Shown: piece by piece, positions 55,776 to 64,000 of the stretch
Layout: each line of letters begins with the position of its first letter
Numbering within the stretch: position 1 is the first letter of the stretch
Source of the DNA: Anabaena lutea FACHB-196
GTDB lineage: Bacteria; Cyanobacteriota; Cyanobacteriia; Cyanobacteriales; Nostocaceae
Direction of reading: 5' to 3'
NCBI RefSeq assembly: GCF_014698305.1
Contig: NZ_JACJST010000003.1
Span: 1-64,000, forward strand
Length of the DNA: 64,000 bases
The notes under the pieces: generated by a model
Database searches by the model: none
What the model was told of the DNA's origin: nothing
What the model saw: only the letters and a program-made list of their open reading frames with translations
Translations under genes and position numbers: made by a program

Positions 55776-56897
55776 CTAGCCGCCAAAACCAGGGATTAAA
55801 CGTTTCAATGCGCGACCGGCAACATCGCCATAGCGCAATTCCCCACAAAGAATTTTACCCATGATTTGAGCGCCGGAGGGACGTTTAACACCCACTTTAT
55901 AACCAATACCAGGGAAGCGATAAAATGCTCCGGCTAATTTTTGCGCCCAAGCCATTTCAGAACCCCATTGTTCGTTAACGGCGTTGCTATATTGCTCTAA
56001 GGCGTTGATATCCCCACTAAGAGCATCGTTAATGGATGCTGCGGCTAGGACACCACTAAAAATAGAGGGACGAATACCTTCGGCGGTAAAAGGATCAACT
56101 ACACAAGCGGCTTCACCGGCTAAAACTGCATTTTGGGTATGCAGCTTTTGGTTTCCATCCCAGATGCACAGGGGATGACCATACTGCTTGCTATTGGTGA
56201 CATTCACATTAAAAGATTTGGCGTATTCATCTAAAATTTTCTTAAAATCCTGGGGTTCGCCACCTATAAATGTACCAACCCCGATAGAATAACCGTCAGC
56301 TTTGGGGAAATTCCAGATATAACCGTTTTTGACTAAACCAAACTCAAAGTGAATTGTCGATTTATTTTCTACATTTGCCGGAATTTCGGCTTCTAATGCT
56401 CCTGCTAGACGGCGTTTACGGTCTTTGAAGCCGAGCCATTTTGCCATTGGACCCTTTGCACCATCAGCGGCGATTAGGTAGCGGCCTTCTACTGATCCGT
56501 TGGCTGTGTTAACTTGCCAATAATCGGTTTTAAATTCAATGCCTGTGACTTCTGTATTGTCTCGTAGTTCAGCGCCTTGACTTTGAGCTTGCTGTACTAA
56601 GAAATGGTCAAAAACATCTCGCCGCACCATCCAGACTGGTTCTTTGGTGGCGATTTTGGCTTCTACGGGGTCGCCTAATTTCCAAGTGAAGCGGAGAGAG
56701 TCAGCTTTGACAGAAATTGCGGGGCTAAAGTCAAAGTCAAACCATTGCGCGATCGCTGGTGACACACCACCACCACAAGGCTTATATCTGGGCAGGGATT
56801 CTTTTTCCAGAACTAAGACTGAGCGTCCTCGCTTGGCTAAATGATATGCTGCTGTTCCACCCGCTGGGCCAGCACCGATGATGATGCAGTCGTACAT
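55776..56897 (-). CDS. Geranylgeranyl reductase family flavoprotein
   Basis: The 373-residue FAD protein has the dinucleotide fold DCIIIGAGPAGGTAA (about 3-17), the RYKPCGGGVSP segment (about 37-47), and GEAACVVDPFTAEGIRPSI (about 269-287). It resembles ChlP-type enzymes that reduce the geranylgeranyl chain of chlorophyll or tocopherol precursors. It could be a paralogue acting on other isoprenoids, so I do not assign chlP. No operon partner is visible. Confidence 0.85.
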   Translation of the reverse strand: MYDCIIIGAGPAGGTAAYHLAKRGRSVLVLEKESLPRYKPCGGGVSPAIAQWFDFDFSPAISVKADSLRFTWKLGDPVEAKIATKEPVWMVRRDVFDHFLVQQAQSQGAELRDNTEVTGIEFKTDYWQVNTANGSVEGRYLIAADGAKGPMAKWLGFKDRKRRLAGALEAEIPANVENKSTIHFEFGLVKNGYIWNFPKADGYSIGVGTFIGGEPQDFKKILDEYAKSFNVNVTNSKQYGHPLCIWDGNQKLHTQNAVLAGEAACVVDPFTAEGIRPSIFSGVLAAASINDALSGDINALEQYSNAVNEQWGSEMAWAQKLAGAFYRFPGIGYKVGVKRPSGAQIMGKILCGELRYGDVAGRALKRLIPGFGG

Positions 56898-57059
56898 AAT
56901 GGCTGAATTTTTGCGTTTTATTTTAATTAGTTGATTTTCCAGTATATATAAGCGTTTCGGATTTTTGGTGAAGTTTCAATAAATATCGGGAAGGGGAATA
57001 GGTGACAGGTGACAGGGAACAGGAAACAGGAGGCAGGAATAATAAAGAAAGATAAATAC

Positions 57060-57112
57060 TCTCCCCATCTCCCCATCTCCCCATCTCCCCATCTCCCCAT
57101 CTCCCCATCTGG
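57060..57112. repeat. CTCCCCAT octamer tandem repeat
   Basis: Six or more CTCCCCAT units lie just downstream (minus strand) of the frr gene's stop and upstream of the reductase gene, next to GACAGG-type repeats (57000-57036). Confidence 0.92.
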
Positions 57113-57124
57113 AGCGTCCCCAGC

Positions 57125-57673
57125 TTAGACGGTGGTGATGTCTTTTTCTTTGTCTGTCAACAACTCATCAATTCTGGCAGTGTACTTATTTGTCAGTTTT
57201 TGCAGTTTGTCTTGCTGATCTCGTGATTCGTCTTCGGAAATTTCCGCAGCTTTTTCCTGTTTACGAATCGAGTCAAGAGCATCACGGCGGATATTGCGAA
57301 TGCCTACCCGACCTTCTTCAGCATACTTAGCGGCCATTTTGACAAATTCTTTCCGGCGATCGCTTGTCAAAGGTGGAATATTGAGCCGAATGACAGAACC
57401 GTCATTACTGGGGGTTATACCTATATCTGACAAAGAAATTGCCTTTTCAACTATGTTGAGACTGCTCTTATCGTAAGGCTGAATCAAGATTGTTGAAGCA
57501 TCAGGGGTGCTGATATTTGCTAGAGATTTCAAGGGGGTGGGTGTACCGTAATATTCCACCTGTACCTTATCTAGTAGACTTGCATTGGCACGACCAGTGC
57601 GAATGGTATTAAAAGCTCGTTGAGTGGCCTCAACGGTATGTTGCATTTTACTTTCAGCTTCAGCTAATTTCAC
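57125..57673 (-). CDS. frr: Ribosome recycling factor
   Basis: RRF splits post-termination ribosomes together with EF-G. The 182-residue protein shows [20 protein letters not shown] at the N-terminus, [24 protein letters not shown] (key residues RTGRA and YYGTPTPL), and the C-terminal helix. The GTG at 57673 is chosen because GGGAGG lies 5 bp upstream and the protein then begins like other RRFs. It overlaps the end of pyrH by 14 bp, the standard pyrH-frr pairing. Confidence 0.96.
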
Positions 57674-58388
57674 AAGAACCTCCCACAAGGGTACCGATAG
57701 ATTCTCCCATTACTGCTCGGTGGATGTTACCTCGCACCGTTAAGTCAAATACAAGAATGGGAATATTATTTTCTTTACACAAGGCAATTGCGGTGCTATC
57801 CATGACTCGCAAATCTTTAGCCAAAACATGGGCGTAGGTGAGGGTTTTATAACGCTTGGCATCAGGATGAATTTGAGGATCAGCGTCGTAGATTCCGTCT
57901 ACTTTAGTGGCTTTAAAAATCACTTCTGCATCAATTTCGGCTGCTCTTAAAGCGGCAGTGGTATCTGTTGTAAAGAAGGGATTTCCCGAACCTGCACCAA
58001 AAATTACCACCCGTCCTTTTTCGAGATGACGGATGGCACGACGACGAATATACGGTTCTGCTAATTCTTGCATAGCGATCGCGGTTTGTACCCGCGTCTG
58101 TACCCCTATTCGTTCTAGCGAATCTTGCAGCGTCATGGCATTCATTACCGTGGCAATCATCCCTATGTAGTCAGCGGCTGCCCTGTCCATACCCGCCGAT
58201 GCCGCTTTGACACCTCTAAAAATATTGCCGCCGCCAACGACGATGGCGATTTGAACGCCAGTGGTTACCACCTCTCCTACCTCTGCGGCTATTTCTTTGA
58301 CCACTTCTGGATCAATACCATAGCCCATGTTGCCCATCAAGGCTTCACCACTCAGTTTAAGTAAAACCCGTCGGTAATTCGTTCCCAT
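57660..58388 (-). CDS. pyrH: UMP kinase
   Basis: PyrH phosphorylates UMP to UDP. The 242-residue amino-acid-kinase-fold protein has [13 protein letters not shown] (about 6-18), [10 protein letters not shown] (about 50-59), and the [21 protein letters not shown] segment (key [13 protein letters not shown]). The ATG at 58388 (MGTNYRRV) is preferred over one 57 bp upstream. The frr gene begins inside its 3' end. Confidence 0.96.
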
Positions 58389-58469
58389 GAAGTTTCGCTT
58401 TATCAAAAAAGTTGCAATTGCCTCCAATTTAAGATAGCAGTACAATGACTATCTGTGTTTAGTTCTGGT

Positions 58470-59051
58470 CTATTTCCGCCATACTAATGGCGTACCAACT
58501 GGTTGTGTTTGTACTGGCTGGATTTCTTGACCTTGAAATAATGCTGCGATCGCATTTCTTAAATAATCTGTTCCCTCTGCTAATGGATCTTGGGGATGAT
58601 CGTCAATTTGTCCTTTGTACCGCAAAATTCCATCATGATCGATTAAAAAAGCTGTAGGTGTGATGATGGCACCAAAGCTACAAGTCACATCCTGGGTTGA
58701 GTCCCTTAGGTAGGGAAAGTTTAACTCATGTTGCTGGGCAAAAGCTTTCATTTTCTCAAAGTTTGACCCAGGGCTAAAGTCTTCTCCATTTTTAACATCA
58801 TTATTATTGGCATGACTACCATTTAATCCGATTAGTGTGAAGCCACTTGGGGAGAATTCCGCTTGAATACTCTTTAGCCTACTAACATACAACTCTACAT
58901 AGGGACAATCGTTACACATCGAGATGACACATACAGAGCGTAAATTTTCTAAATAACGGCTGAGATGGTGTACGCGCTCATCAACTCCTGGTAACTCAAA
59001 ATCTGGGGAATAACTGCCAATCGGCGTATCAATTGTTTCTAGTATAGTCAT
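58470..59051 (-). CDS. Thioredoxin-fold peroxiredoxin-like protein
   Basis: The ~193-residue protein has an AhpC/TSA-type fold: DFELPGVDERVHHLSRYL (about 16-33), CVISMCNDCPYVELYVSRL (about 41-59) with a CxxC (CNDC) plus an upstream Cys, and a C-terminal TPTAFLIDHDGILRYKG. This family of cyanobacterial thioredoxin/redoxin proteins lacks clear assignment; it probably reduces peroxides or protein thiols. The ATG at 59051 is preferred over the GTG at 59123, where the extra 24 residues look unrelated. Confidence 0.83.
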   Translation of the reverse strand: MTILETIDTPIGSYSPDFELPGVDERVHHLSRYLENLRSVCVISMCNDCPYVELYVSRLKSIQAEFSPSGFTLIGLNGSHANNNDVKNGEDFSPGSNFEKMKAFAQQHELNFPYLRDSTQDVTCSFGAIITPTAFLIDHDGILRYKGQIDDHPQDPLAEGTDYLRNAIAALFQGQEIQPVQTQPVGTPLVWRK

Positions 59052-59286
59052 CTTCTCTTGCCCGAAGGAACTAGGAACAAAAACTTTTTCAAAATCAGCG
59101 TTGGTTTGCAGGTGTAAAACCACGCCTTAGCATCTGTTTTATATCCAATTAATTTTATATACTAATTTAGGTGGCGTAAATTGTAAAACTACCCAATCTA
59201 GTACTGGTGCTATTTTCATCATCCGAAAGTATATTTTTTATGTGAATTTTATTTAAAAATATTGCCAAGCACCACGTAAATTTTTT

Positions 59287-60198
59287 ATGACAAATTCTAC
59301 AGACGCATTTACATCCACAAAAACCTGGCTTTGGCAAGGGTTTCCCATCTGTTACCAAACCCAAGGAACTAGTGGACCGGCTGTGATTCTGGTGCATGGC
59401 TTTGGCGCATCATGGCTACACTGGCGCAAAAATATACCAGTTTTAGCAGAAAATTGTCGGGTTTATGCCATTGATTTAATTGGCTTTGGTGGTTCAGCTA
59501 AACCTGCACCCGGTGAGACAATTACCTACACACTAGAAACTTGGGGACAGCAAATAGCAGATTTTTGTCGGGAAGTGGTGGGTGAACCTGCGTTTCTAGT
59601 GGGAAATTCCATTGGTTGTATTGTCGCTCTGCAAGCTGCGGTAATTAACCCGGATATGGCTTTAGGAACTGCGCTACTGAACTGTTCTTTGCGGTTATTG
59701 CACGATCGCAAGCGTGTTACTTTACCTTGGATCAAGCGGTTTGGTGCGCCTATTCTACAAAATTTTTTATCTATTAAACCAGTAGGTAATTTCTTTTTTA
59801 GTCAATTAGCTCAACCAAAAACAGTCAAAAAGATTCTTTTACAAGCCTATGCTAACGGAGAAACAGTGACAGATGAGTTAGTAGATATTTTGATGACACC
59901 GGCAAAAGATCCTGGTGCTGCTGCTGTATTTTTGGCTTTTACTGCTTATTCCAGTGGACCTTTAGCGGAAGAATTATTACCTATATTATCTTGTCCAGCG
60001 ATTATTTTATGGGGAACGGCTGACCCTTGGGAACCTATTGATTTAGGTAAAGAGTTAGCCAATTTTCCCCAAGTACAAAAGTTTATTCCTTTAGAAGGTG
60101 TGGGGCATTGCCCTCAAGATGAAGCTCCTGAGTTGGTAAATCCCATTTTACTCGATTGGATTGGTGAGCAATCTCCACATATACCCAGCGGTCACTGA
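59287..60198 (+). CDS. Alpha/beta-fold hydrolase
   Basis: The 303-residue protein has the classical fold: ILVHGFGASWLHWRKN (about 35-50), the nucleophile elbow FLVGNSIGCIVALQA (about 99-113) with the catalytic Ser, Asp in WGTADPWEP (about 249-257) and His in GVGHCPQDE (about 277-285). The related cyanobacterial proteins are of unknown substrate, often called haloalkane-dehalogenase- or pheophytinase-like. It converges with the peptide cluster that begins at 60224. Confidence 0.88.
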   Translation: MTNSTDAFTSTKTWLWQGFPICYQTQGTSGPAVILVHGFGASWLHWRKNIPVLAENCRVYAIDLIGFGGSAKPAPGETITYTLETWGQQIADFCREVVGEPAFLVGNSIGCIVALQAAVINPDMALGTALLNCSLRLLHDRKRVTLPWIKRFGAPILQNFLSIKPVGNFFFSQLAQPKTVKKILLQAYANGETVTDELVDILMTPAKDPGAAAVFLAFTAYSSGPLAEELLPILSCPAIILWGTADPWEPIDLGKELANFPQVQKFIPLEGVGHCPQDEAPELVNPILLDWIGEQSPHIPSGH

Positions 60199-60223
60199 TA
60201 GGTGATTTATTGAGTTGAATTAC

Positions 60224-60391
60224 TTACCAGCCACGTCCGCGACCGTAACCGCCCCAGCCACGTCCGCGACCGTAACCACCCCAGCCACGTCCGCGACCAT
60301 AACCACCCCAGCCACGTCCCCCTGCTAAAACTTCCTGTTCCTCTGCGGATAATTCCGTCAACAACTTAGATGAAATAATTTTATTTGACAT
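60224..60391 (-). CDS. Double-glycine leader peptide 1: Gly/Arg/Trp/Tyr repeat core
   Basis: This 55-residue gene is below usual gene-finder size. The leader ends ELSAEEQEVLAGG (Gly24-Gly25). The core is three 9-residue repeats RGWGGYGRG followed by RGW, encoded by a 27-bp tandem repeat. The DNA upstream is GGAGGCTAACAACT before the ATG, a good ribosome-binding site shared with the other peptide genes. Trp and Tyr recur every 9 residues and each Tyr sits in YGR. The leader implies cleavage after GG and export, probably by the adjacent ABC transporter. Modification of aromatic and Arg residues is possible but no enzyme is in view. Confidence 0.85.
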   Translation of the reverse strand: MSNKIISSKLLTELSAEEQEVLAGGRGWGGYGRGRGWGGYGRGRGWGGYGRGRGW

Positions 60392-60531
60392 AGTTGTTAG
60401 CCTCCATTAGTTGAGAAATCTTATTCAGTCATAATCTTTTTATAAAGTTAATCTTGATCAATTCAATTATTCTATGGTTATAAACTAATAGTTATAATTT
60501 CTATCTTTTGGAGCAAATCAATTATAGGAGG

Positions 60532-60602
60532 AGTCAGGAGACGCTTCGCAGACCTATGGCTTACGCCACGCTGCGCTATCGGGTCAGGAGTAAAACCCTC
60601 TT
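60532..60602. repeat. Dispersed repeat module with extra insert
   Basis: GAGTCAGGAGACGCTTCGCAG and GGGTCAGGAGTAAAACCCTC flank an insert with GGCTTACGCCACGCTGCG. The same outer sequence without the insert lies at 2150-2200. Confidence 0.75.
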
Positions 60603-60785
60603 ATAGTAAGAGTTTCATTATCAATTGATGTCCTAACCACCCTGTCCACGGCTATAATTTATGAGTTGATTTTTCCCATCAGAAACTACTACAATCATGC
60701 GTAATTCACAATTTAAAAATTTCATATTAAAAAAGGAGAGAGGAGAAAATTAGGTATGAATCCTAGCAGGTTTCTATTTTATTTC

Positions 60786-60838
60786 TCAGCCGTGGACGTA
60801 AAGATTTACGAGTAGATCTGAGACTTAGATACGGCTGA
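60786..60838. other. Three-way-junction-like inverted repeats
   Basis: TCAGCCGT (60786-60793) pairs with ACGGCTGA (60831-60838). Inside are CGTAAA/TTTACG (60797-60810) and ATCT/AGAT (60816-60830). The single-stranded fold would be a compact three-armed structure in the intercistronic RNA or a repeat element. Structural evidence only. Confidence 0.45.
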
Positions 60839-60955
60839 TGCTTGATAGCAAGTGATTGATACGAAAATTTCCCTTCATCCGATAACTACAAGATTAAAAA
60901 ACCAAGACTATCAAAGATAGCTCAGTTTATAAACTTTACCTACTGAGGAAGAGAA

Positions 60956-61162
60956 TTACTCACGGTATTTATCGCAAGTATCAGAATAGCTCTCATCCTC
61001 GTCAGAGGGTGTATATTGATTATATTTTTGGTAGTCGCCTCCACATTTTTGTTTTTTCGGTTTACAGGAACGGGTAGACTTGTAACATCCTCCAGATAAA
61101 AGTTGTTGTTCTTCTGCGGATAGTTCTACAAGCAAGTTAGATATATTGTGTTGAAGTGACAT
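60956..61162 (-). CDS. Double-glycine leader peptide 2: Cys/Tyr/Lys-rich core
   Basis: The 68-residue peptide from the ATG at 61162 has the leader ...LLVELSAEEQQLLSGG (Gly24-Gly25). Its 43-residue core starts directly with Cys and contains four Cys (26, 33, 40 and 63; the first three in C-x6-C-x6-C spacing), seven Tyr and many Lys followed by an acidic segment (DEDESY). Disulfides or Cys-based modifications are plausible. The ATG is preferred over the one 15 bp upstream because it aligns the leader with the other peptides. Confidence 0.85.
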   Translation of the reverse strand: MSLQHNISNLLVELSAEEQQLLSGGCYKSTRSCKPKKQKCGGDYQKYNQYTPSDEDESYSDTCDKYRE

Positions 61163-61409
61163 AATTATGTGCCTCATCTGAGGGAATTGTTTTCTTTTTC
61201 ATTAGGAGGAAAGAGAAAGTGAAGAGTTATCTCTAGTAGTTTCCTTGGGAGTATCTAGAAGTTGAATGTAATGTTTGAAGAGAACATCTGAGACTACCCA
61301 AACTCTCTCAAAATTCAATTATTTTGAGGCAGTTATATCAGCTTTCTCTTTCCTCTAGTCAATGCAAGATTCAAATTAAATGGCTACCCAATTTATGGGT
61401 TTTATCCAC

Positions 61410-61640
61410 TTAAAATCTCCGCCGTCTACCTCTTTCGACATCGACATCGACATCAACATCAACATCACGTCCTCTACCACCTCTACCACCTCTACCACCT
61501 CTATCAAAATCGTCTTCATAGGGACCGTAGCTATAGCAGATTATTGGTCGACGAGACCTTTGTTGTCCTCCGGATAAAAGTTGTTGTTCTTCTGCTGATA
61601 GTTCTACAAGTAAATCAGATTGAATGTTTTGATTTGACAT
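61410..61640 (-). CDS. Double-glycine leader peptide 3: Arg/Gly and Asp-Val repeat core
   Basis: The 76-residue peptide has the same leader (...LLVELSAEEQQLLSGG, Gly24-Gly25). The core begins QQRSRRPIICYSYGPYEDDF, then has three GGR-like repeats and five DV repeats, ending RGRRRRF. GGR is encoded by a 9-bp tandem repeat and DV by a 6-bp repeat. TGAGGCTAACAATC precedes the ATG. An exported low-complexity peptide is predicted; the function is unknown. Confidence 0.85.
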   Translation of the reverse strand: MSNQNIQSDLLVELSAEEQQLLSGGQQRSRRPIICYSYGPYEDDFDRGGRGGRGGRGRDVDVDVDVDVERGRRRRF

Positions 61641-61942
61641 GATTGTTAGCCTCAATTTATGAACAGGTGAATAACACCTATGCTTCTTTTATAAACATTC
61701 ATTCTTAGAAATTAATGACTCCCTAGTTATAAATTTAATACAACTTAAGTTCTTCCTAGGTTCTAATAATTTCAGATGAATATCTTTCTTTTAACTGATG
61801 TTTATTGTTTATATATCTATTTAAAAATAAAGCTATAATATAGAATTAGAAATGTTTTATTGATTTAATCAAGCAACAAAAAATGTAGAGAAAACATAAA
61901 GCTATCTCTACAAAAAGATGTTTGAATTTAATTCTGGCTATT
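61641..61942. other. Spacer between peptide genes 3 and 4
   Basis: This 302 bp AT-rich spacer contains the TGTAGAGA/TCTCTACA hairpin at 61884-61912 and otherwise nothing I can identify. Confidence 0.6.
61884..61912. terminator. TGTAGAGA/TCTCTACA hairpin after peptide gene 4
   Basis: An 8-bp perfect stem (61884-61891 with 61905-61912) lies 30 bp beyond the stop of peptide 4 on the minus strand. It may partially terminate or protect the transcript. Confidence 0.55.
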
Positions 61943-62269
61943 TTATGAAAATAAATTATTTAGAAGATTGGGTAATAAATTACTCAATTTATCACTATTA
62001 GAACTAATTGTTAGCAACCCAAACGTGAAAGAAAGTCCTATAGTGAGTTGGGAGAATTTATATTTGGTGGTTTGTGAGGTAGAATCACCTGAAGCGAGAG
62101 TTACATCACTTTCTCCTTCAGTTTCGATATCAGTTTTTTGGAAGAATAACTTACTTTCACCTAATAGATCTAACATAGGAAATATCTGCCCACCAACTAG
62201 AGATTCTTGCTCGGTATCAGAAAGATATTTAAATAATTGAGGATGATTCAATCGAGTATGTTTAGGCAT
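61943..62269 (-). CDS. Double-glycine leader peptide 4: longer hydrophobic core
   Basis: The 108-residue protein has a related but divergent leader, FKYLSDTEQESLVGG (Gly26-Gly27). Its 81-residue core is mixed: QIFPMLDLLGESKLFFQ, a polar Thr/Ser segment, then LTIGLSFTFGLLTISS (a membrane-length hydrophobic stretch) and a Leu/Asn-rich end. It could be a bacteriocin-like pore former or a structural peptide. GCAAGGAGTAATCAT precedes the start. It is the peptide gene nearest the transporter (75 bp). Confidence 0.8.
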   Translation of the reverse strand: MPKHTRLNHPQLFKYLSDTEQESLVGGQIFPMLDLLGESKLFFQKTDIETEGESDVTLASGDSTSQTTKYKFSQLTIGLSFTFGLLTISSNSDKLSNLLPNLLNNLFS

Positions 62270-62344
62270 ATGATTACTCCTTGCACAAGTAACTAGGTTG
62301 GGTTAAACTATGGCAGAATAGCAGAAAGTTCTGAAAATATTAAT

Positions 62345-64000
62345 TTATACAGTCAAAAACTGCAAATGCTCTCCAGGTTTTGATAAAAATGTATCAGGAG
62401 TGCCTTGAATTTGTATCTGACCTTTTTCTATGAGAACAATCCAATTAGCGCGATGGATAACGCTAGGACGATGGGTAATTAAAATTGTGGTTTTACCTGT
62501 GCGATATTCCAAAAGACGATCTAGAACATGAGCTTCACTCATGGGGTCTAGTCCAGCGGTAGCTTCATCTAAAATGAGTATAGGTGGATTTTTGATAATT
62601 CCGCGTGCGATCGCTAATCTTTGTCTTTGTCCACCTGAAAGATTTGCTCCAAATTCCCCTAATACGGTTTGATATTTATTCGGTAATTGACTGATAAAAC
62701 CATCTGCATCAGCAATATCACAAGCTTGAACAATCTCTTCAAAAGAAATATTAGGTGTGCCTAAACGGAAGTTTTCCAAAATTGAACGACTCCAAAAATG
62801 AGGTTCTTGGGGTACATAAACTACTTGTTGTCGGTAACAATCTAAGGCAATATCTTGAATATTAAAAAAACCGATGCGGATATTACCAGATTCTGGTACA
62901 TATAAACCAGCTAATAATTTAGCTAAAGTGCTTTTACCACAACCTGATTTACCAATTAAAGCAATTACTTTTCCTCCAGGAATCTGGATAGAAAAATCAT
63001 CTAATAAGTCAACTCTGCCTGGGTGATGAAATTTGAGATGGGAACAACTAATATCTGCATTACTGGAAATTTGGGCAATTGGCTTTTGACTTCCTCCTAC
63101 TACTTCTGGTGTGGCATCAATAACTTCTAATAATCGAGAAACTGCGGTTTGGGAGCGAAAATATTCATCAACGAAGCCAACTAATGAATTAATTAAAGCT
63201 AAAACATTAACTTGTAAAGCATTAAAAGCTAACATTTGTCCAATGCTTAAATCGCCTTTAATTACTAAAAGACTCCCAAATCCTAGTAAAATGACACCAC
63301 CAATTGTAGATATAAGTCTAGCAATAGTACCATTAATAATTGCTATTTGAACTGTGCTAAAAGCAAGATTAGCCAGACGACCAAAACGACTTTGAAATTC
63401 ATCCCAAAATTGAGGAGCAGCATTTGTAGTTTTAATTACCTGTGCGCCTTTAAATGTTTCTACTAAAACACCCTGATTTTCTGCTCCTAAGACTAAGAGA
63501 CTTCGGGTTTTTTGTTGAAGAATGGGTAAGAAAGGTAAGGTAGATAAAGTTATGAAACTAGCAATTAATAAGACTGCTATTGTTAATTGCCAGCTATAAA
63601 ATAACATTAAGCATAAAGAAATAACAGCGATAAAAAACTGGCTCGGTAAAACAATGACAATTTGTGATACTAATTGGTTAATTTCACTAATATCTCGGAG
63701 TCGGCTTGTGATTTCACCACTTCGACGAGATTCATAATAATTTAAGGGTAATTGGAGAAGTTTTTTGCCAAATTCTAGAACTAAGCCTAATTGTAATCTC
63801 TGCCCAAAATGAGAAATCATTAAGGCTTGAAATACTTGCAAACCTCCACTGAATAAGCTCATGACGACAACTGCGGAAACTACAACAGTAAGTAATTGCA
63901 CATCTCCTCGAACTAGAACATCATCTGTGAGTAATTGAATTAAAACAGGAGTTCCTAGAGCTAGTAAACCCAGGACGATATTGATCATTAAAACCTGAGT
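62345..64000 (-). CDS. ABC exporter of the peptidase-containing/HlyB type (partial, cut by window edge)
   Basis: The visible 551 residues include the transmembrane domain (NYYESRRSGEITSRLRD is the conserved cytosolic loop) and an ATPase with Walker A GKSGCGKSTL, signature LSGGQRQR, Walker B ILILDEAT and H-loop ITHR. The frame is open to base 64000, so the N-terminus lies outside. Exporters of double-glycine peptides carry an N-terminal C39 peptidase domain there, which would cleave after the GG of the four downstream leaders; this is predicted, not seen. All five genes share one strand and probably an operon. Confidence 0.88.
   Translation of the reverse strand, partial: TQVLMINIVLGLLALGTPVLIQLLTDDVLVRGDVQLLTVVVSAVVVMSLFSGGLQVFQALMISHFGQRLQLGLVLEFGKKLLQLPLNYYESRRSGEITSRLRDISEINQLVSQIVIVLPSQFFIAVISLCLMLFYSWQLTIAVLLIASFITLSTLPFLPILQQKTRSLLVLGAENQGVLVETFKGAQVIKTTNAAPQFWDEFQSRFGRLANLAFSTVQIAIINGTIARLISTIGGVILLGFGSLLVIKGDLSIGQMLAFNALQVNVLALINSLVGFVDEYFRSQTAVSRLLEVIDATPEVVGGSQKPIAQISSNADISCSHLKFHHPGRVDLLDDFSIQIPGGKVIALIGKSGCGKSTLAKLLAGLYVPESGNIRIGFFNIQDIALDCYRQQVVYVPQEPHFWSRSILENFRLGTPNISFEEIVQACDIADADGFISQLPNKYQTVLGEFGANLSGGQRQRLAIARGIIKNPPILILDEATAGLDPMSEAHVLDRLLEYRTGKTTILITHRPSVIHRANWIVLIEKGQIQIQGTPDTFLSKPGEHLQFLTV

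What the first reader, a model, noticed from the sequence alone, without database searches (positions are those of the whole stretch)
60224..64000. Locus of four double-glycine peptides with one leader and unrelated cores, beside an ABC exporter
Seen: peptides 1-3 share a 25-residue leader with GG at exactly residues 24-25, and peptide 4 has a related one. The cores are wholly different, all genes are on one strand, and they follow an ABC exporter. Established: such leaders are cleaved and exported by C39-peptidase ABC transporters. Inferred: a secreted-peptide system in which a fixed leader carries diversified cargo. No radical-SAM, lanthionine or cyclodehydratase gene is in the window, so the class of modification is unknown.
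Basis: partly seen in the sequence, partly recalled or inferred. Interest (0 to 1): 0.85.

Follow-up and report, generated by a model that had tools for sequence, protein, structure and literature searches.

The report
Fixed-leader secreted peptide array, cyanobacterium
A filamentous cyanobacterium carries a row of small genes that share one export tag but have very different cargoes, next to the machine that by its sequence should cut off that tag and secrete the cargo; the overall kind of system is known, but relatives show an orderly pattern, often with a glycine- and aromatic-rich repeat peptide last in the row, that makes its purpose testable.

Summary
Three minus-strand ORFs share a 25-residue leader ending in GG at residues 24-25; a fourth has a related 27-residue leader. 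They lie downstream of a 722-residue exporter that does carry a C39 peptidase domain. Beyond 64000 lie a HlyD adaptor and a CTB-family precursor; no maturase was found. This is the short C39 plus HlyD layout of group III of Wang et al. 2011.

"Unrelated cores" is half right. In 61 orthologous loci (own plus 60) I counted 139 array peptides. Leaders stay alike (mean identity 0.57), cores fall to 0.16 (shuffled 0.14). DNA identity between neighbouring genes drops from 0.82 to 0.29 right after the GG codon. But slots recur: the last gene encodes a Gly/aromatic, mostly Arg-rich repeat peptide in 28 of 47 loci, against 6 of 83 non-last genes; this label changes at least 12 times on the exporter tree.

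Export and leader removal are near certain by homology. What the cargo does is inferred: I favour antagonism by cationic glycine-rich peptides, with a biofilm-matrix role as in EbfG a close rival.

The parts
60224..60391 (-). Peptide 1 gene, 55 aa: 25-aa leader (60317-60391) plus a 30-aa core of three 9-residue Gly/Arg/Trp/Tyr units and a partial fourth (distal slot)
   Evidence: 27-nt tandem repeat, 3.4 copies; the differences between the printed units are synonymous
60956..61162 (-). Peptide 2 gene, 68 aa: 25-aa leader (61088-61162) plus a Cys/Lys/Asp/Tyr-rich core
   Evidence: similar core in Anabaena catenula L073
61410..61640 (-). Peptide 3 gene, 76 aa: 25-aa leader (61566-61640) plus a core with RPIICY, RGG repeats and DV repeats
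   Evidence: 6-nt and 9-nt repeats
61943..62269 (-). Peptide 4 gene, 108 aa: 27-aa leader (62189-62269) plus a core conserved across species (QKTDIET family), directly after the exporter gene
   Evidence: family alignment A2, 25 sequences; long beta-hairpin predicted at moderate confidence
62345..64000 (-). C39-peptidase ABC exporter; the gene runs on to contig position 64513 (722 aa in all)
   Evidence: PF03412, PF00664 and PF00005 over their cut-offs; residues 9-710 align with solved 'ABC-type bacteriocin transporter' 4ry2
60317..60408 (-). 5' module of peptide 1: ribosome-binding site plus leader, ending at the GG codon
61088..61176 (-). 5' module of peptide 2, ending at the GG codon
61566..61661 (-). 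5' module of peptide 3, ending at the GG codon
60227..60319 (-). 27-nt tandem repeat in the core of peptide 1

Best explanation
This is a type-I secretion locus with no maturase found. A C39-peptidase ABC exporter and a HlyD adaptor recognise a conserved leader, cut it after Gly-Gly and push the cores out of the cell, probably through a TolC-like channel encoded elsewhere. The cargo falls into three groups: a CTB-family peptide encoded upstream, a conserved peptide directly behind the exporter (peptide 4), and a variable array (peptides 3, 2, 1). In the array the leader is held fixed by selection on its protein sequence, while cores diverge, expand by in-frame DNA repeats and come and go between sister species. 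The last array gene often encodes a Gly- and aromatic-rich, mostly Arg-rich cationic repeat peptide. I think the array most likely acts outside the cell against competitors, with the distal peptide binding anionic surfaces or nucleic acid like glycine-rich antimicrobial peptides. Shown by homology or count: exporter domains, leader family, sharp boundary at GG, slot order, turnover, no maturase found. Inferred: cleavage and export in this strain, the outer-membrane channel, and all of the biological function. Export mechanism about 0.9; antagonistic function about 0.45.
For: C39, transmembrane and ATPase domains over their Pfam cut-offs; HlyD_3 in the next gene. CTB precursor over the NCBIfam cut-off at contig 67001-67222, 75.5 bits. 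The four window peptides hit the same CTB model, below its cut-off. 139 array peptides in 56 of 61 loci; leader identity 0.57, core 0.16, shuffled core 0.14. Within-locus identity falls from 0.82 at the last leader codon to 0.29 at the first core codon, 66 pairs in 29 loci. Distal Gly/aromatic peptide last in 28 of 47 loci against 6 of 83 non-last genes, 0 of 10000 shuffles; after collapsing at 90% exporter identity 12 of 20 against 3 of 40, 0 of 10000. Gly/aromatic cores (35): mean net charge +5.3, none negative, 25 of 35 at +5 or more, Glu 0.0%, Trp 11.7%; significant in-frame repeats in 28 of 34 tested. At least 12 label changes on the exporter tree. pN/pS 0.34 for leaders and 0.48 for alignable cores in 85 ortholog pairs. 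Nematode NLP and caenacin peptides are described as basic and enriched in glycine and aromatics with YGGYG/YGGWG motifs; synthetic NLP-31 was active in vitro against a fungus (PMC6780910 and PMC2453101, passages).
Against: No immunity-like gene recurs in the arrays: the only recurring extra ORFs of 45 or more residues are further GG peptides (shorter ORFs and other places were not examined). Some distal cores have little charge (L081 and L109 have net 0) and look structural. The cyanobacterial GG-protein array with a tested role serves biofilm, not killing (PMC4997328). I saw no activity, expression or mass-spectrometry datum for this locus. The Gly/aromatic class was defined after looking at the data, and 19 of 47 loci do not end in it. 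At the 85% collapse only three loci remain and the slot test is weak (446 to 1707 of 10000 by setting). Two loci with 10 kb downstream (L080, L095) and two further unnamed relatives (L069, L070) have an exporter but no array found.
Confidence: 0.5

Rival explanations
1. Matrix or surface peptides: the exporter lays down a mixture of adhesive or self-assembling peptides, in which the cationic Gly/aromatic repeat peptide crosslinks acidic sheath polysaccharide or acidic partner peptides, much as the EbfG proteins serve biofilms of Synechococcus elongatus.
For: EbfG1-4 are GG-motif proteins from a four-gene operon, secreted with the help of a C39 exporter (PteB) and needed for biofilm (PMC4997328). 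EbfG1-3 form amyloid and EbfG4 lies on the cell surface and in the matrix (PMC9981879 passages). Mature EbfG cores lack homologues of known function, and mature EbfG1 is Tyr/Pro-rich, like the L084 core. Low-complexity repeats, acidic and cationic cores in the same arrays and no recurring immunity gene fit a material.
Against: The window exporter was not shown to be orthologous to PteB; the paper likens PteB's domain order to HetC, which has an extra nucleotide-binding domain that this exporter lacks. Turnover between sisters (A. catenula lacks peptide 1) and the Trp/Arg-rich, Glu-free composition fit an antagonistic peptide at least as well.
Confidence: 0.37
2. Peptides that are modified in trans by an enzyme encoded elsewhere, for example cyclophanes on the Trp-Gly and Tyr-Gly repeats.
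For: Exporters 60-63% identical sit beside LanM plus a lantibiotic in Trichormus variabilis plasmid A and beside MvdC/MvdD plus a microviridin in Nostoc sp. UHCC 0870. Gly-rich repeats are substrates of GrrM radical-SAM enzymes (recalled).
Against: GrrM: 0 matches in the genome. One SPASM protein in the genome, on another contig. No LanM, MvdC or MvdD homologue and no CX3CX2C motif in long ORFs around 61 loci. YcaO and LanB-type enzymes were not searched for.
Confidence: 0.1
3. Signalling peptides (pheromones) for filament differentiation or population sensing.
For: C39 exporters export pheromones elsewhere, and HetC, a C39 exporter, acts in heterocyst differentiation (PMC10986499 passages).
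Against: Cores vary strongly between close relatives and many are long repeats, which is unlike a signal read by a receptor. Receptors were not searched for.
Confidence: 0.05

Closest known systems
Group III cyanobacterial bacteriocin gene clusters (Wang, Fewer and Sivonen 2011, PMC3140520)
   Same: Short-type C39 ABC exporter, HlyD, several double-glycine precursors with poorly conserved cores, no SurA, no LanM; cores of the two named precursor families there are called rich in Gly, Cys, Ser and Thr
   Different: The text read (parts 1-3 of 5; no supplementary table seen) does not describe a fixed slot order, a distal Gly/aromatic repeat peptide or Gln at -7; single members may be listed in its Table S3
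EbfG1-4/PteB biofilm system of Synechococcus elongatus PCC 7942 (PMC4997328, PMC9981879)
   Same: Array of GG-motif small proteins with cores lacking homologues, exported with the help of a C39 transporter
   Different: Different cores; orthology of the exporters not tested; no distal Gly/Arg/aromatic repeat peptide mentioned in the passages read
CTB family bacteriocin (NCBIfam NF038167)
   Same: Leader resembles those of all four window peptides; a true member lies in the same locus at contig 67001-67222
   Different: The four window peptides score 16-29 bits, under the 32-bit cut-off; in peptides 1-3 the match is mainly the leader
Nematode NLP/caenacin glycine-rich antimicrobial peptides (PMC6780910, PMC2453101, passages)
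   Same: Basic, glycine- and aromatic-rich, clustered genes, rapid diversification
   Different: No homology is claimed; kingdom and export route differ; a likeness of composition only

Membership tests
Group III cyanobacterial bacteriocin cluster | Short-type C39-ABC exporter (no CAP_ED extension) | tested here: met
   722 aa, C39 domain at residues 11-142, no further N-terminal domain found
Group III cyanobacterial bacteriocin cluster | HlyD in the cluster | tested here: met
   HlyD_3, 58 bits, next gene
Group III cyanobacterial bacteriocin cluster | No LanM and no second, peptidase-free ABC transporter | tested here: met
   No LanM homologue in 61 loci; no second ABC gene seen on reading the ORFs of L009
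Group III cyanobacterial bacteriocin cluster | Exporter falls in the group III clade of the C39 tree | not tested
   The sequences of the published tree were not fetched
CTB family bacteriocin NF038167 | Whole-protein score at or above 32 bits | tested here: not met
   Peptides 1-4 score 29.3, 23.2, 24.0 and 16.0
Canonical C39 double-glycine leader | Hydrophobic residues at -12 and -4, GG at -2/-1 | tested here: met
   L-12 99%, L/I/V-4 97%, GG 99-100% of 139; hydrophobic -12 and GG were partly required by the search
Canonical C39 double-glycine leader | Leu at -7 (ComA consensus; LahT groove; PMC6363468 passages) | tested here: not met
   Gln at -7 in 99% of 139; in 25 of 25 peptide-4 relatives (Q21 invariant)
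GrrA/GrrM glycine-rich radical-SAM system | GrrM (TIGR04261) in the genome | tested here: not met
   0 matches at E <= 0.001
EbfG/PteB biofilm system | Exporter orthologous to PteB and a biofilm role | not tested
   PteB sequence was not at hand; no phenotype data
Bacteriocin | Growth inhibition of relatives and self-immunity | not testable with these tools
   No recurring immunity-like ORF of 45 or more residues in 56 arrays; activity needs experiment

The most novel reading that the evidence does not exclude
Nostocales run a slot-ordered secreted peptide cocktail. One Gln(-7)-type leader exports a conserved peptide, acidic and Cys-rich partners and, last in the array, a rapidly evolving cationic Gly/Arg/aromatic repeat peptide that grows by in-frame DNA repeats. 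This would be a bacterial counterpart, reached independently, of the YGGYG-type antimicrobial peptides of nematodes.
Probability: 0.3. Interest if true: 0.75.

Novelty: new variant of a known kind. Interest (0 to 1): 0.52.

Why it matters
Hundreds of cyanobacterial double-glycine precursors have been listed since 2011 with no rule for their cores and few tested functions. The comparison here turns a list into an order: a leader under constraint, a boundary exactly at Gly-Gly, slots with recurring chemistry, and a cationic repeat peptide that comes and goes between close relatives. That makes the function testable with a handful of synthetic peptides and one deletion, and it decides between two very different roles, weapon or building material.

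Tried and rejected
Copying of a leader cassette between neighbouring genes: tested and mostly rejected. At leader positions where the amino acid agrees, codons agree in 0.580 of within-locus comparisons and 0.567 of comparisons between loci (bootstrap 0.556-0.611), so selection on the protein explains the conserved leader. Window peptides 2 and 3 are an exception (16 of 19 codons).

Local or trans maturase: no LanM, MvdC or MvdD homologue in 61 loci; the queries found their own sources L154 and L155. No GrrM in the genome. A Pfam scan of 79 neighbouring ORFs (79 of the 136 listed, from 14 of 41 eligible loci; ORFs over 600 aa had been left out) showed no recurring maturase among the 25 commonest of 114 families; the other 89 families were not printed.

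RNA elements: no Rfam match in 56000-64000. Promoter-like sites 6 against 8.7 expected, terminator-like sites 3 against 1.3 expected. Immunity genes: none recurring. A fold search with the model of peptide 4 was not run, because its mean pLDDT is only 62.7.

Selection within repeats: across 29 Gly/aromatic cores with clear repeats, pN/pS between units is 0.53 on only 5.5 synonymous and 9.5 nonsynonymous differences, too few to lean on.

Rows dropped and limits: of 80 loci, 20 with exporter identity under 75% were left out of the counts; they show no array, and at most one peptide resembling peptide 4 (6 of 20). The printed output was cut in the middle; later counts used the stored data. In the first, pattern-only look, 15 of 20 regions from unnamed relatives had GG peptides behind the exporter and 5 had none (L055, L069-L072). 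Array counts are lower bounds: one search found five loci with missed peptide-4 relatives and four with GG peptides missed by the same-strand filter. The 139 array peptides include at least one peptide-4-type row (L148, 1/4). The search pattern required GG and a hydrophobic residue at -12, so those percentages are partly built in; at -7 it allowed Gln, Leu and others. The thresholds for the Gly/aromatic class were set after seeing the data; three other settings gave 0, 4 and 15 of 10000 at the 90% collapse, and 446 to 1707 of 10000 at the 85% collapse, where three loci remain. The label on the tree depends on that cut-off: L085 and L127 end in cationic aromatic cores that fall outside the class, so 12 label changes are not 12 gene gains or losses.
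Full report
What is there. Four ORFs on the minus strand follow a large ABC exporter gene. Peptides 1, 2 and 3 have 25-residue leaders ending in Gly-Gly; peptide 4 has a 27-residue leader. Each of peptides 1-3 has GAGG nine bases before its ATG. The window is the first 64000 bases of a 352-kb contig, so the flank could be read. The exporter is 722 aa (contig 62345-64513) with C39 peptidase, transmembrane and ATPase domains over their Pfam cut-offs; its residues 9-710 align with the solved 'ABC-type bacteriocin transporter' 4ry2 (known as PCAT1, recalled). Upstream of it lie a HlyD-family gene (contig 64626-66200) and a CTB-family precursor (match at 67001-67222, 75.5 bits, over the 32-bit cut-off). 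In the five relatives aligned the array lies between the exporter and the same alpha/beta-hydrolase gene as here (window 59287-60198).

Is it more than chance? The leader of peptide 3 finds five places in the 6.06-Mb genome at E <= 10, four of them in this locus. The scan of genome contigs gave 80 named loci. With the own locus, 61 have an exporter at least 75% identical; by record title they are Nostocales except one named only 'uncultured cyanobacterium' (L079), which groups with Anabaena and Dolichospermum in the tree. In 56 of the 61, one to four leader peptides follow the exporter (139 in all). Five have none: three are cut by contig ends (87, 519 and 620 bases left) and two, L080 and L095, are not. 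Two more unnamed relatives with 9 kb downstream, L069 and L070, also have none. 34 of 61 have a peptide-4 relative by my filter; one search added five. Array frames look selected: in 85 ortholog pairs pN/pS is 0.34 for leaders and 0.48 for cores (pairs were picked by core similarity and are not independent).

Leader against core. Mean pairwise identity is 0.57 for the last 23 leader residues and 0.16 for cores, against 0.14 for shuffled cores. In 66 within-locus pairs from 29 loci, DNA identity is about 0.3 upstream of -20, about 0.7 through the leader, 0.82 at the last leader codon and 0.29 at the first core codon. The edge lies exactly at Gly-Gly. Codon identity at conserved leader positions is hardly higher within loci than between loci (0.580 and 0.567), so protein-level selection, not recent copying, explains the fixed leader. 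The leader has Leu at -12 (99%), Gln at -7 (99%) and Leu/Ile/Val at -4 (97%). The passages read of the LahT paper give Leu at -7 in the ComA consensus and in the protease's hydrophobic groove (PMC6363468). Gln at -7 is thus a departure from the textbook leader; it is shared by the CTB leader (read) and is invariant in the 25 aligned peptide-4 relatives.

The cores are not simply unrelated. Blast clustering puts 139 cores into 26 groups, though the largest, of 54, joins even peptides 2 and 3 of the window and is chained by low complexity, not a clean family. Recurring kinds include cores ending in a basic strand after an acidic stretch, cores with a PDITVTGILTDSSG.FPVRILGF-like segment, and Cys-rich cores. 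Most striking is the distal gene. With a class defined as Gly >= 20% and Trp+Tyr+Phe+His >= 20%, the last gene qualifies in 28 of 47 loci with two or more array genes, against 6 of 83 non-last genes; 0 of 10000 shuffles reach this (mean 12.1). Collapsing loci at 90% exporter identity leaves 20 loci: 12 of 20 against 3 of 40, again 0 of 10000; three other thresholds give 0, 4 and 15 of 10000. At 85% only three loci remain and the test is weak (446 to 1707 of 10000). The 35 cores of this class have mean net charge +5.3, none negative, Gly 38.7%, Arg 14.3%, Trp 11.7%, Glu 0.0%; 28 of 35 end in Trp, Tyr or Phe; 28 of 34 tested have significant in-frame DNA repeats, as do 48 of 104 other cores. In the window the unit is 27 nt, 3.4 copies, and the two differences among the printed units are synonymous. 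On a maximum-likelihood tree of 55 exporters (those with at least 3.3 kb downstream or with the class) the class is present in 32 and needs at least 12 changes, 10 of them forced by well-supported branches. It is still more clustered than chance (shuffled mean 17.8; 1 of 500 shuffles as low). Some changes reflect the cut-off, not gene loss: L085 and L127 end in cationic aromatic cores just outside the class. One clear case of gene presence and absence is the nearest relative, Anabaena catenula FACHB-362 (exporter 98% identical), which lacks the peptide 1 gene: about 690 bases of the window correspond to about 105 bases there.

No maturase, no immunity gene found. Around 61 loci (1.21 Mb) there is no LanM, MvdC or MvdD homologue and no CX3CX2C motif in any ORF of 250 or more residues. 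The genome has no GrrM match and one SPASM protein on another contig. Less close exporters (60-63% identical) do sit with a LanM/lantibiotic pair and with a microviridin operon on named plasmids, so the exporter family also serves modified peptides. In 56 arrays the only recurring extra ORFs of 45 or more residues are more GG peptides.

How it most likely works. By homology, the C39 domain binds the leader, cuts after Gly-Gly, and the core leaves through exporter, HlyD and an outer-membrane channel. What the cores do is not shown. Cationic, Trp/Arg-rich, Glu-free repeats that differ between close relatives suggest antagonism. Basic glycine- and aromatic-rich peptides with YGGYG and YGGWG motifs are known as antimicrobial or candidate antimicrobial peptides of nematodes (PMC6780910 and PMC2453101, passages only; the former adds that direct tests are few); this is a likeness, not kinship. 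Against it stands a tested cyanobacterial case: EbfG1-4 with the C39 exporter PteB are needed for biofilm in Synechococcus elongatus (PMC4997328, first part and passages), EbfG1-3 form amyloid and EbfG4 is on the surface and in the matrix (PMC9981879, passages). A matrix role fits the low-complexity repeats, the members with little charge and the lack of a recurring immunity gene. I put antagonism at about 0.45, matrix at about 0.37.

Known or new. Wang et al. 2011 (PMC3140520, parts 1-3 of 5 read) listed 145 clusters with 290 precursors and stated that cores are hardly conserved. Short C39 exporter plus HlyD plus several precursors is their group III, so the kind is known. PMC4558948 (passages) adds that short peptides crowd such clusters. 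The slot order, the distal Gly/Arg/aromatic repeat peptide and the near-invariant Gln at -7 were not found in print by the searches; most of their hits were seen as listings only, the library holds open-licence papers only, and no supplementary tables could be read. Transcripts of CTB-family genes rise under phosphate limitation in Nodularia spumigena (PMC9846622, passages), which shows expression of related genes, not of these.

Noticed in passing
L010 8222-15053 (contig C60 of the same genome): A second C39 exporter plus HlyD, 63% identical to the first, with one short GG peptide upstream and, after HlyD, what look like a response regulator and a histidine kinase (by reading, not by a search); no array behind it was noticed
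   Followed up: partly
L014 1375-1575 (contig C56, leader at 186565-186639): An orphan peptide with the array-type leader (MSNQMFMFDLLEELSTEAQEFLVGG) and a Pro/Gln/Gly core, with no exporter in the 3 kb seen
   Followed up: partly
L020 1501-1722 (contig C13): An orphan GG peptide with a short leader like the one of the second exporter locus (MSNLLFTNVPVEQQEIIVGG)
   Followed up: no
L154 3746-11090 and L155 2383-9139 (named plasmids): Exporters 60-63% identical sit with LanM plus a mersacidin-type precursor (Trichormus variabilis plasmid A) and with MvdC/MvdD plus a microviridin precursor (Nostoc sp. UHCC 0870)
   Followed up: partly
L076, L081 and L087, about 1.2-1.8 kb behind the exporter, minus strand: Further GG-leader peptides on the opposite strand inside arrays (four loci, three printed), missed by the same-strand filter
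   Followed up: no
window 61943-62269: Peptide 4 family: conserved core predicted as a long beta-hairpin with a C-terminal helix (hairpin pLDDT about 76-84, mean 62.7); invariant Gln residues; function unknown
   Followed up: partly
window 57020-57108 and contig about 69957-70240: Short CCCCATCT-type tandem repeats between genes, seen as MGRWGDGE repeats in spurious ORFs
   Followed up: no
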